NCBI GenBank assembly: GCA_022564295.1
Contig: JADFLR010000009.1
Coordinates: 1-64,000, forward strand
Direction: 5' to 3'
DNA: 64,000 nt
DNA from: Bacteroidota bacterium
GTDB taxonomy: Bacteria > Bacteroidota > Ignavibacteria > Ignavibacteriales > Ignavibacteriaceae
Positions 1,933 through 41,695 of the stretch are shown in pieces (the stretch's first letter is position 1; the number at the start of each line of letters is the position of its first letter). The position numbers and the translations under genes are program-made. The notes below the pieces were generated by a model. It was not told the DNA's origin. It ran no database searches and saw only the letters and a list, made by a program, of their open reading frames with translations.

Positions 1933-3072
1933 ATGGAAGTGATAAAACTTAAATCAATTAATATTTTAGAGGAAAGAGGCGGTGTTACTGAATACAACGC
2001 AAGAAACATTCCATTATCCCATTTTAACTTACTTGTGGGAGACAACGCACAAGGCAAAACACGATTGTTCAACACAATGCACTATATGACTTCTACAGCA
2101 TATAATCTTGCTAATATTCTAGCAACCACATTTAAATCAAAATGGATTTTCCAAGTGCAGTCAAATTCCGATACCGAGGAAGTTGTTTATGATATTAAAG
2201 TAAAGGGCTCAAATGGTAAAAATGTGTATACTGAAAAAATAACTAGAAATAAGAAAATGATTTTTTCGTCCAGTGAGAAGTACCTATATAACGAAAGCAG
2301 TAGAAGAAAAATAACAAACTATTATATTCCGGAAAACATTCCTGCAATCGTTTCTATAAATGAAAAAGGATTTCATACAATAAAATTAATCAGAGATTAT
2401 TTTCAAAGAATCATATATGTGTCATCCAACAAGAGTAGAGATTTACATGTAGATCCCCAATCCATAGTACCAAATAAGATTGGGACAAATCTTGCATCAG
2501 TACTAGTTAACTGGGAGAAGAATTATCCACAAAATTTTCAAAGAGTTGTGAATGAATTCAAAGATAATTATCCATTTATAAAGAAATTTTATTTTACAGA
2601 TCAAAAAACCCTAGAAGGAATAAAAGCAAAATTATTAACCATTACTGAAAGGAATGTGTTACACCCTATTACTCAGCAAAATTGGTCTGATGGATTATAT
2701 AGAATGTTATTTCTCCTCATGTCAACAAAAGTACCATTCGTTGACAACGAAAAAATCTATTCACCTTCTTTTATTATGGTCGATGAAATCGAAAACGGTT
2801 TAGATTATAAAAGCTTGAAGTTCATAATCGATTATTTAAAAGATTATTCCGATGAGGTGCAAATCGCTCTATCAACTCATTCGCCTCTCGTCTGTGAACT
2901 CATTCATCCAGAGAATTGGATTATTGTGAAAAGGCATGGAACAAAAGTCAATTTTATCTCTCCTCCAAAATTCGAAAAAAAACTTAATGAAGAACTAGAA
3001 TTATTCAAACATAAACATTGGGATTTTTACACAAAACACATAAGCAATTCAAATTTATACCTGATTAAGTAA
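1933..3072 (+). CDS. AAA/ABC-type ATPase of the RecF/OLD-like class
   Basis: A 379-residue ATPase of the RecF/SMC-like group (AAA_15/AAA_21). The Walker A loop is GDNAQGKT (36-43), an ABC-like signature is seen in 'NWSDGLYRMLF' (about 250-260), Walker B is IMVDEIENG (281-289) and the switch histidine is in STHSP (314-318). The insertion between Walker A and the signature is fairly short and carries no zinc hook or long coiled coil. One base separates its stop from the next start, so the two are surely co-transcribed. Stand-alone ATPases of this class paired with a TOPRIM-like nuclease are a recurring anti-phage layout (OLD, Gabija, PARIS); a defence role here is inferred. Confidence 0.85.
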   Translation: MEVIKLKSINILEERGGVTEYNARNIPLSHFNLLVGDNAQGKTRLFNTMHYMTSTAYNLANILATTFKSKWIFQVQSNSDTEEVVYDIKVKGSNGKNVYTEKITRNKKMIFSSSEKYLYNESSRRKITNYYIPENIPAIVSINEKGFHTIKLIRDYFQRIIYVSSNKSRDLHVDPQSIVPNKIGTNLASVLVNWEKNYPQNFQRVVNEFKDNYPFIKKFYFTDQKTLEGIKAKLLTITERNVLHPITQQNWSDGLYRMLFLLMSTKVPFVDNEKIYSPSFIMVDEIENGLDYKSLKFIIDYLKDYSDEVQIALSTHSPLVCELIHPENWIIVKRHGTKVNFISPPKFEKKLNEELELFKHKHWDFYTKHISNSNLYLIK

Positions 3073-3073
3073 A

Positions 3074-3718
3074 ATGCAGAAGGTTTGGTTTTTCGTTGAG
3101 GGTAAGTCAGAAGAAAACTTAGTCACCTTTTTAATAAGGAAAAAATTCAGTTCTAGTATTCAACTTGAGAAAGATTTACTCGACTTTGTTAAAAAAGATA
3201 TTTCTAATGCCCAGCATCATTTAGGATATTGTGAGAATTGTGAAAATGTTAATAAGATCCCGCACAGGATTAATGAATTAGAATACCTAATTGAACAAAG
3301 TAAATCCAACGTGATCATTATTATATGTGACGTTGAGAAACTTGGTTGTGTTTCGAACAGAAAAGAAAAAATTGAAAATGTTCTGAATTCAGATGTTAAA
3401 AAACTAAAAATTGTACGCGCATTTTTTAATCCAATGATTGAAATTGGGTATTGGGAATGTGAGCAAATAATTAATCGGGTGATTGACCTAGAATATAGAA
3501 ATAATTTAAAGCTGAGCCCTAAAGACCCGATCACTTCAGAACCAGACCTAGCACACCCGTTAACTGCGTTAAAAAAATCATTCGAGAAGTATAATCTAAA
3601 ATACCGCAAATCGAGTTTTTCAGAAAAGTTTTTTGCAAGAGTGGATTTTGATACTTGTGATAATGATGTGCTTAAAAGAATTATTAATCCATTAGAAACT
3701 ATTTGTAATCCTACTTAA
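3074..3718 (+). CDS. TOPRIM-fold DUF4276-like partner of the AAA ATPase
   Basis: A 214-residue protein beginning 'VWFFVEGKSEENLVTFLI'. The VEG-x-(S/T)-E-E start, the strand 'SNVIIIICDVEKLG' with an acidic residue at D86, and a later 'FFNPMIEIGYWECE' motif fit the TOPRIM-related DUF4276 type, in which E9 and D86 would bind metal. Two cysteine pairs (CENC at 53-56, and C87/C92) are extra to the usual pattern. The one-base gap after the ATPase gene argues for a two-subunit machine. The exact family was judged by eye; DUF4435 or another TOPRIM family is possible. Likely role: nuclease or sensor subunit of a defence cassette (inferred). Confidence 0.65.
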   Translation: MQKVWFFVEGKSEENLVTFLIRKKFSSSIQLEKDLLDFVKKDISNAQHHLGYCENCENVNKIPHRINELEYLIEQSKSNVIIIICDVEKLGCVSNRKEKIENVLNSDVKKLKIVRAFFNPMIEIGYWECEQIINRVIDLEYRNNLKLSPKDPITSEPDLAHPLTALKKSFEKYNLKYRKSSFSEKFFARVDFDTCDNDVLKRIINPLETICNPT

Positions 3719-38807: not shown

Positions 38808-38945
38808 ATTTTGATAACTGCCTATATTTTAACGTGTTACAAAATAGTGTGCTTAAATATTTGTGATTTAGATTTCTAATATTTCCCAATGATTAGTTGA
38901 TTTTAAACTCACACCAATTGGAGGATTAAAAATATACAATACGTA
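38808..38945. repeat. Left copy of a direct repeat bracketing the cold-shock-like gene
   Basis: About 135 bases that align, at roughly 70 percent by eye, with 41909-42046, in the same orientation and 3101 bases apart. Shared blocks include TTTTGATAAC, GTTACAAAATA and TGCTTAAAT. The rest of the 560-base spacer (38676-39238) holds no gene. The weak dyad CCGAT ... ATCGG near 39120-39143 is the only other structure. Confidence 0.65.
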
Positions 38946-39238: not shown

Positions 39239-41695
39239 TTAGTAATTGAATCCTGTCAAATACTGTTTCGCTGGCAATATAAAATTGTGATTACAATCGT
39301 TGCAGGCTTGCTCTCTATCATCAATATTTTTAATGTTTTTACCACCACAACATGGGCAAATTGTGCCCTGTCTATAAGTCAGACTTTGCTGGGGACCACT
39401 CCCACAATGTATGCAGAGATAGAAATTTTCTATTTTAATATTGGATTCTCGACTATCAATAATCTCTCGACAGGCCCAACAGTGATTAAAATAAATATTA
39501 TGATCATGCGGTTTTCCTTCGGAACAATATGCAACTGTACTATTATACCGAGCAAGGTGCTTAGCATATTTTTGATTGGGGATTAATGGTTTACTGCATA
39601 TTGAACATTTTAATCTCTCTCGAATTTCATTTAATCTATTTACCCAACCACTCAGTCTCGGAACATATTCAATACTATTTTTCAAATCTTTTACTTTAGG
39701 AATTATCTTAGCAATTTCTAATACCTCGAGCAAAGACCATTCATTCCAGGAAAGATTTATATCGGGTTTAAGCCTTGCTCCACTTAAATGACGACTCCCA
39801 AAGCGGCCTGATAAACCATAACTATAATTTGAGTAAAAAGAACATTCTTTTTTCTCTCTTGGACAAAAAGCTCGACTTATTCTGCCTTGTCCCTCACTCC
39901 TATCCTCGCTGGTTGGCCAGGGTCGTGCCTCACAATATTGAACAATAGTTGGCTCACAACTGGGTAATAAAGGACTCAAATCAATATTCTCATTTAAGTT
40001 CCATGCTTTTTCTACTACATAATCTTGAAATTTTAAATGAAAAGTTTCAAATAATTCCGTTTTTTGCGACGGATTCTTTATTGCTTCCAACATTAACAAT
40101 AAAAGGGTTACTAATGGATTCTCGACATTATCCTTTTCATGTGTGATATCAAAATTGCCACTCTCTTTCAAACATCTATATATTAAATAAATTTTTGCCT
40201 TACAATTTAATTCGGGCCAAAAATTATCAATATCAGATTCGTTCAAGTGCATTATTTCGACCTGCTTAACTGGTGATAACAATCTGAACAGTGATCTCTC
40301 TTCGAGGAATATTTCAATTGGTATAATTTTTAAAAGATATTCTTTCGTTTCGTGAGTAGTTTTTAACAAAATTGAATGTATGCTCTTTACTGTTTCTTCA
40401 TTAAGTATTTCATTTGCTTCTATTAGTTTTTCAATCTGAATTCTTGGAGTTAAACTCTCAAAAATGTTCCTATTAAATAGCAATTCTTTGGGTAATAAAT
40501 TTATAGCTGTTTCTAAATCAAAGCTGGAATCATTCTCAGCAATTGAATTTTCTAGTTTGGTTTTAATTTCGTTTAGATATTTTTCTCTGTCTCTATCATT
40601 AGCTTTTTTATAATTGTTTAGAAGTAGTTTCATAAACATAACGATAGGCATTTGTGAACGGAACTCAGAATCACTCACATAGCTTTTTGTAGGAAGCTGC
40701 TCCCAATAACTTTCTTTATTGAAGGAAAGACTTTCATTAATACTTTCAATGGCCTCTCTTACAATATTCTTATCAACTTCACCAATTGTTAATTGTTTTT
40801 TAATAATATTTTTGCAAACTTCAAATCTCTTTCCAAAAAATATATTTTTCCTCAGATCTGGATTACTCACAAAAAGGACTTCAGGCAATTCATTCCAAAA
40901 GTGTTTTTTGCCTTCTATAGAAAGAAAATCTTTTAATTCATCAAGAATTTCAGTGTAATCATAATGGCTATTTATTTTCTCTTCTAATATTTCTAAGCAA
41001 ATATTAAAATACTCCGAATCATTTAATTTCTCTCTTAGGTTTCTTTTTGCAAGCAAATAATCCTTAGGTATTTTTTGAATATCAAAATCTCTTAATATTC
41101 CTCTGCTCTTTAAACTATCCAATGCTTCTCCGATAATTTCTTCCTTTTTATATTCATCCATCTCTATCGATTTGAGCATATACAAACAAACATTAAATCG
41201 TTTCCAGTCTGGTAGCATTGTCCGCAATTCAGCAAAATGAGTTAAAAATTTATTTGAAAGATTTGAAATAAGAGATTTTTTGGTTGGGAGGTAATCTATT
41301 CTATCTAAATTTTTATATAATAGTTTAGTGGCATCTTCGAAATCAATTCTATCAAGATATGCAGGAAATGCCTGAATCCAGAAGTCAGAGCTCTCATGAA
41401 ATGCTAATCTCTTAACCAGATCAACGTTTTCTTCATCATTAATTCTTTTGACCTTGATAGCTTTATATTTGTCTTTTTTTTCATCATAATAAACTTCAAA
41501 AGTAACTAGTAGACCTTCATTAAAGCTTCCCGTATCCGAAACTATATCATTCTTGTGAACAAATAGATCTTTTCCTTTGATTGGTTTTATAAAACCATAT
41601 TCAATTTCCTCATAAATCTCCATTTGGTCGTCTTCATCAAACTCACCTGTAGGCTTAGAACCACCAAACCATTTGATAAATCCAATTTCTCTCAT
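39239..41695 (-). CDS. Large protein: cold-shock-like domain, helical middle, C-terminal zinc clusters
   Basis: An 818-residue protein I do not recognise as a whole. Residues 1-85 resemble a cold-shock domain: 'IGFIKWFGG', 'EYGFIKPIKGKDLFVHKNDI' carry RNP1- and RNP2-like strands. Residues 90-560 are charged helices, probably a solenoid. Cysteines cluster at about 570-620 and from 697 on (C697/C700, C724, C739/C742, C761/C764, C780-C783, C798/C801), likely several zinc ribbons. It has no signal or membrane segment. A nucleic-acid-binding protein, possibly RNA-directed, is likely; AT-rich composition and flanking repeats suggest it was acquired. Confidence 0.75.
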   Translation of the reverse strand: MREIGFIKWFGGSKPTGEFDEDDQMEIYEEIEYGFIKPIKGKDLFVHKNDIVSDTGSFNEGLLVTFEVYYDEKKDKYKAIKVKRINDEENVDLVKRLAFHESSDFWIQAFPAYLDRIDFEDATKLLYKNLDRIDYLPTKKSLISNLSNKFLTHFAELRTMLPDWKRFNVCLYMLKSIEMDEYKKEEIIGEALDSLKSRGILRDFDIQKIPKDYLLAKRNLREKLNDSEYFNICLEILEEKINSHYDYTEILDELKDFLSIEGKKHFWNELPEVLFVSNPDLRKNIFFGKRFEVCKNIIKKQLTIGEVDKNIVREAIESINESLSFNKESYWEQLPTKSYVSDSEFRSQMPIVMFMKLLLNNYKKANDRDREKYLNEIKTKLENSIAENDSSFDLETAINLLPKELLFNRNIFESLTPRIQIEKLIEANEILNEETVKSIHSILLKTTHETKEYLLKIIPIEIFLEERSLFRLLSPVKQVEIMHLNESDIDNFWPELNCKAKIYLIYRCLKESGNFDITHEKDNVENPLVTLLLLMLEAIKNPSQKTELFETFHLKFQDYVVEKAWNLNENIDLSPLLPSCEPTIVQYCEARPWPTSEDRSEGQGRISRAFCPREKKECSFYSNYSYGLSGRFGSRHLSGARLKPDINLSWNEWSLLEVLEIAKIIPKVKDLKNSIEYVPRLSGWVNRLNEIRERLKCSICSKPLIPNQKYAKHLARYNSTVAYCSEGKPHDHNIYFNHCWACREIIDSRESNIKIENFYLCIHCGSGPQQSLTYRQGTICPCCGGKNIKNIDDREQACNDCNHNFILPAKQYLTGFNY

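What the first reader, a model, noticed from the sequence alone, without database searches (positions are those of the whole stretch)
39239..41695. 818-residue cold-shock-like/zinc-cluster protein of unknown role
A cold-shock-type nucleic-acid domain, about 470 residues of helical solenoid and two regions of paired cysteines in one protein are an uncommon set. It is unrelated to its neighbours (yajQ, histidine phosphatase), bracketed by repeats, and richly charged. The design suggests binding RNA or single-stranded DNA and building a scaffold, perhaps in defence or stress.
Basis: partly seen in the sequence, partly recalled or inferred. Interest (0 to 1): 0.6.

Follow-up and report, generated by a model that had tools for sequence, protein, structure and literature searches.

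The report
Mobile cold-shock/zinc protein linked to defence
This gene encodes a rare, mobile bacterial protein that joins a nucleic-acid-binding cold-shock domain, a long helical arm and a zinc-cluster domain; its relatives sit inside or beside known anti-phage systems, so it is probably an undescribed, untested kind of immune protein.

Summary
The 818-aa ORF is real (39239-41695, minus strand). It has an N-terminal cold-shock domain (Pfam E 1.8e-6), about 480 residues of helical repeats and a C-terminal domain rich in conserved Cys/His. The gene is sporadic: 0 of 36 same-genus/family genomes in the first search, about nine clear carriers in the phylum. The only near-full-length relative found is cyanobacterial (40%). 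A divergent 125-bp direct repeat, unique in the genome, brackets it.

The C-terminal domain defines an apparently undescribed family. Relatives lie inside a type I BREX operon, inside or directly after type I restriction operons (E. coli chromosomes, Klebsiella conjugative plasmids, a Prevotella plasmid), beside Wadjet, and in a Septu/AbiL-like island. In E. coli the gene is an optional insert in one restriction operon (198 of 5426 genomes cover it). Other copies, including the window's, stand alone. No PADLOC, Pfam or NCBIfam model covers the protein beyond its cold-shock domain, and no phage hit was found.

Most likely it is an anti-phage protein that binds single-stranded nucleic acid and works alone or as an add-on to DNA-restriction machines. 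The defence link is well supported by gene context; the mechanism is inferred. AlphaFold models were unusable (pLDDT 39 and 33).

The parts
39239..41695 (-). 818-aa gene: cold-shock domain, helical-repeat arm, Cys/His-rich C-terminal domain
   Evidence: open frame; 40% identical relative over nearly the whole length
41444..41695 (-). cold-shock domain, residues 1-84, with an acidic insert at about 18-32
   Evidence: Pfam CSD 1.8e-6; best NCBIfam match is the retron Se72 effector, 5.9e-7, below its cut-off; PADLOC CSD_V 4.3e-8; aromatic binding positions kept
39998..41443 (-). helical-repeat arm, residues 85-566
   Evidence: units with a 'W..[LI]P'-like motif mostly every 57-73 residues; helices only in a low-confidence model
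39242..39958 (-). conserved Cys/His C-terminal domain, residues 580-818
   Evidence: C588-E589, C618, N686-R687, C697/C700, C724, H738-C739/C742, D747-x-R749, C761/C764 invariant or nearly so in 12 relatives
38809..38933 (+). direct repeat, copy 1
   Evidence: 74% identical to copy 2; only these two copies in the genome
41910..42034 (+). direct repeat, copy 2
   Evidence: same as copy 1

Best explanation
It is a horizontally moving, largely self-contained anti-phage protein of an undescribed family. Inferred working: the cold-shock domain and the C-terminal Cys/His domain grip single-stranded nucleic acid (single-stranded DNA exposed by phage replication or by DNA motors, or phage RNA). The helical arm holds the two apart or docks a partner. 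Binding blocks phage replication or expression, or switches on an activity in the C-terminal domain. It can act alone, as it must in the window, or be slotted into type I restriction or BREX operons as an extra layer. Shown: domain composition, conserved residues, sporadic distribution, repeat-bracketed site, placement of relatives inside defence operons. Inferred: nucleic-acid binding, zinc binding, anti-phage activity, the order of events.
For: Relatives inside or touching five different kinds of defence locus: BREX type I, type I restriction in E. coli/Klebsiella and Prevotella, Wadjet, Septu/AbiL/REase III island, PDC-S15 candidate. Control stretches of carrier genomes: 1 of 92 proteins with a PADLOC match at 1e-40. 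Optional in one E. coli operon. Sporadic. Cold-shock domain closest to a retron-effector cold-shock model in NCBIfam. HARP-like segment in cousins.
Against: The window copy and three others stand alone among ordinary genes, where no defence context supports the reading. The link between the window protein and the defence-linked relatives rests mainly on the C-terminal domain (about 23-31% identity) plus a weak match over the cold-shock region with L018. No activity is known, no structure could be predicted, and the number of independent loci is small.
Confidence: 0.55

Rival explanations
1. It is not an immune effector but a regulator or chaperone of the systems it joins: it binds the operon's mRNA or the restriction complex and tunes restriction against modification, for example to avoid self-damage after transfer to a new host.
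For: Lies within the restriction operon between hsdS/yecA and hsdR in E. coli and Klebsiella and is frequent on conjugative Klebsiella plasmids; cold-shock domains are classical RNA chaperones (established knowledge).
Against: Stand-alone copies have no system to regulate; unrelated host systems (BREX, Wadjet, type I) would all need the same regulator; the same operon exists without it.
Confidence: 0.22
2. The C-terminal domain is an enzyme, for example a nuclease using E589, H738, D747 and R749, and the rest only targets it; the protein kills or cleaves rather than merely binds.
For: Nearly invariant polar residues beyond the Cys set: E589, N686, R687, H738, D747, R749.
Against: No match to any nuclease family; H738 may be a metal ligand; no reliable fold.
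Confidence: 0.15
3. Housekeeping or general stress protein.
For: Cold-shock domain; neighbours of the window copy are ordinary genes.
Against: Absent from 36 of 36 same-genus/family genomes in the first search and from almost all of the phylum; varied locations.
Confidence: 0.04
4. Cargo that serves the mobile element itself (plasmid or island upkeep, or anti-restriction) rather than phage defence.
For: Repeats around two stand-alone copies; plasmid copies; integrase beside the Deinococcus copy.
Against: BREX and E. coli chromosomal operons hold it among defence genes.
Confidence: 0.1

Closest known systems
E. coli/Klebsiella 'cold shock domain-containing protein' in the hsdM-hsdS-yecA-X-hsdR-M48 operon (WP_000290303.1, WP_000290304.1)
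   Same: cold-shock N-terminus and the same conserved C-terminal Cys/His domain
   Different: 620 aa in the Klebsiella copy compared; about 25% identity in the C-terminal domain; lies in a restriction operon, whereas the window gene stands alone; itself of unknown function
Retron Se72 / type V retron effector (NCBIfam NF038236, PADLOC CSD_V)
   Same: its cold-shock domain model is the best NCBIfam match (5.9e-7)
   Different: the model is 62 residues long; score far below its curated cut-off; no helical arm or zinc domain in the model; no retron was looked for here
TOTE and TALON systems (PMC12458937)
   Same: helical-repeat (TPR) plus cold-shock domain fusion in predicted conflict systems
   Different: those also encode TATA-binding proteins and effectors; no such gene was recognised beside the window gene; no TPR match in Pfam
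CoCoNuT type IV restriction systems (PMC11090510)
   Same: modular use of cold-shock, HEAT-like and zinc ribbon domains in predicted RNA-targeting restriction
   Different: no McrB GTPase or McrC part found in this protein

Membership tests
Cold-shock domain proteins (PF00313) | cold-shock domain with RNP1/RNP2-type aromatic residues | tested here: met
   Pfam 28.1 bits against a cut-off of 27; W9, Y33, F35, F45, H47
Retron Se72 effector (NF038236) | score above the curated cut-off of 82 bits | tested here: not met
   29.3 bits
Known defence system in PADLOC 2.0 | a model that covers the protein beyond the cold-shock domain | tested here: not met
   only CSD_V on residues 33-84; relatives likewise apart from weak chance-level matches
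CoCoNuT CnuB/CnuC | McrB GTPase or McrC (DUF2357) domain | tested here: not met
   no such Pfam or PADLOC match
TOTE/TALON | TPR-OB protein next to a TATA-binding-protein gene | tested here: inconclusive
   no TPR match; neighbours read as ORFs but not all scanned for TBP
The CSD/arm/Cys-His family described here | C-terminal signature CE, C618, NR, CxxC, HCxxC, DxR, CxxC | tested here: met
   aligned in 12 relatives
Anti-phage defence protein | demonstrated protection against phage | not testable with these tools
   needs an experiment; only gene context is available

The most novel reading that the evidence does not exclude
A new widespread immune family: cold-shock domain, helical arm and a new zinc-supported catalytic or recognition domain that senses single-stranded nucleic acid made during restriction or phage replication. 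It works alone or as a plug-in second layer of type I restriction, BREX and Wadjet loci.
Probability: 0.4. Interest if true: 0.72.

Novelty: new variant of a known kind. Interest (0 to 1): 0.5.

Why it matters
The same protein core recurs inside several unrelated DNA-restricting systems and also alone, which points to a shared step, perhaps sensing of exposed single strands, that is not in the defence catalogues searched here. E. coli carries it as a natural plus/minus variant of one restriction operon, including in strain ATCC 8739, so the idea can be tested directly.

Tried and rejected
AlphaFold2 on the whole protein and on the C-terminal part with the two sequences that were allowed: pLDDT 39.4 and 32.5, so no fold search was run on them. 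Viral contigs with six queries and phage records with two: no relative; the alignment A2 was not conserved enough for a pattern search. Rfam over the locus: nothing. Reading the 805 E. coli genomes as carriers was rejected: most of those matches are 50-210-bp pieces of neighbouring sequence, and 198 genomes cover at least 80% of the gene. A clean empty site could not be shown: yajQ is followed by an unrelated gene in G004, and in G002 the histidine phosphatase lies on a different contig from yajQ. Weak hits G612, G645 and G797 were not used. A common repeat signature with the HARP-type cousins was not supported in the window protein.

Full report
WHAT IS THERE. The ORF at 39239-41695 (minus strand) encodes 818 residues. 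Residues 1-84 are a cold-shock domain (Pfam 1.8e-6) that keeps W9, Y33, F35, F45 and H47 at the nucleic-acid-binding positions of CspA and carries an acidic insert. Residues 85-566 look like helical repeats: a 'W..[LI]P'-like motif, placed by eye, recurs mostly every 57-73 residues, and profiles built from the units of one protein score the relative above all 200 shuffles (modest margins, 9.4 against 6.0 and 17.8 against 6.9 bits). Residues 580-818 hold the conserved Cys/His set. The gene has low GC (0.315; window ORFs 0.366, s.d. 0.030). A 125-bp direct repeat with 74% identity brackets it and occurs nowhere else in the genome.

DISTRIBUTION. None of 36 genomes of the same genus or family carried it in the first search; a wider search of the class found one in the same family, G787. 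Nine clear carriers turned up over all searches of the phylum, the window's genome included; tallies at E up to 0.001, weak hits and repeats included, were 6 of 296, 3 of 244, 5 of 391, 2 of 395 and 2 of 98. The only near-full-length relative found is in a Microcoleaceae cyanobacterium (40%). In a tree of the C-terminal domain the window protein groups with this one and a Deinococcus plasmid protein, though some long branches make the tree uncertain. This is the pattern of a horizontally moving accessory gene. Yet yajQ and the histidine phosphatase are not neighbours in the relatives where both could be placed, so an exact empty site could not be shown. A second relative (L020, G168) lies between duplicated pieces of the 3' end of the EF-P gene (a 32-bp match scored far above shuffles; the EF-P identity was read by eye), which also suggests integration.

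NEIGHBOURS OF RELATIVES. (a) G319: within brxA-brxB-brxC-pglX-...-CSD-pglZ-brxL, all core genes with E from 3e-50 to 0 in PADLOC. (b) Klebsiella plasmids and E. coli: hsdM-hsdS-yecA-CSD-hsdR-M48. Of 5426 complete E. coli genomes 198 cover at least 80% of the gene. Others have the same operon without it: M-S-yecA-R-M48 and M-S-R-M48. So it is an optional insert. (c) Prevotella plasmid pE2-28: directly after hsdM-hsdS-hsdR; no cold-shock domain is evident in this relative by reading, and it was not scanned with Pfam. (d) G317: after Wadjet jetC and jetD. (e) G050: with a type III restriction enzyme, a TIR protein, Septu PtuA/PtuB and AbiL-like genes. (f) G223: after a gene matching PADLOC candidate PDC-S15. 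(g) Deinococcus grandis plasmid: type I subunits 6-10 kb away and an integrase next door. (h) Stand-alone: the window, G787, G468 and G458; the cyanobacterial copy cannot be judged because the contig ends. Control: in eight other 20-kb stretches of carrier genomes 1 of 92 proteins matched PADLOC at 1e-40, a DRT4. The number of independent loci is small; position inside operons is the stronger argument.

ARCHITECTURE IN THE FAMILY. One branch (L019, L020, L021, L045-L047) has an arm with 'LW..G.....P' repeats and, before the C-terminal domain, a stretch recognisable as HARP-like in three members (E 3e-5 to 0.006, below the curated cut-off). HARP domains bind and anneal single-stranded DNA in SMARCAL1 (own knowledge). 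Two members carry two cold-shock domains (in L046 the first is seen only in the alignment). The window protein lacks the HARP-like part. These swaps involve nucleic-acid-binding modules, which is why single-stranded nucleic acid is taken as the likely target (inference). A further hint: a Cmr6 protein of a type III CRISPR complex with a cold-shock domain is the best, weak PDB match (E 0.0042).

MECHANISM. Shown: composition, conservation, context. Inferred: the cold-shock domain and C-terminal domain bind single strands, the arm spaces them or docks a partner, and binding stops phage replication or expression. The stand-alone copies argue that no fixed neighbouring partner is needed; the E. 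coli plus/minus operons argue that it is not a core restriction subunit. Whether the C-terminal domain is catalytic is open: E589, N686, R687, H738, D747 and R749 are nearly invariant, but H738 may be a ligand and no fold could be predicted. Its profile finds only weak PDB matches to zinc ribbons of polymerase subunits (best E 0.031).

KNOWN OR NEW. No Pfam, NCBIfam, PHROG or PADLOC model covers more than the cold-shock domain in the proteins scanned, apart from weak zinc-ribbon, HARP or chance matches. Papers searched describe cold-shock domains in CoCoNuTs (PMC11090510) and in TOTE/TALON systems (PMC12458937); a 2026 BREX survey has no occurrence of 'cold shock' in its main text (PMC12839542). 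Literature outside the held open library was not searched. The verdict is a new variant of modular nucleic-acid-binding defence proteins.

Noticed in passing
window 1933-3718 (+): A low-GC ATPase gene (1933-3072) and its partner (3074-3718) match PADLOC candidate HEC-01A (2.7e-24) and HEC-01B (1.5e-5): a second candidate defence locus in the window, about 36 kb away.
   Followed up: partly
L006:1338-14294: Dense island in G050: type III restriction enzyme, TIR protein, Septu PtuA/PtuB, the family member and AbiL-like genes within 13 kb.
   Followed up: partly
L050, L051, L052: The slot between hsdS and hsdR of an E. coli type I restriction operon near tRNA-Leu/yecA is variable: empty, yecA-like gene only, or yecA-like gene plus the cold-shock gene.
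   Followed up: partly
L020:8770-8913 and L020:12910-13220: Duplicated 3' pieces of the EF-P gene on both sides of the family member in G168, as if EF-P were an integration site.
   Followed up: partly
L045:9336-12475: The relative in G787 is split over two overlapping reading frames (frameshift or assembly error).
   Followed up: no
L018:13197-16430: Two further extra genes lie between pglX and pglZ of the same BREX operon: a PDC-M36A-like protein and an AlbA-type ATP-binding protein by reading.
   Followed up: no
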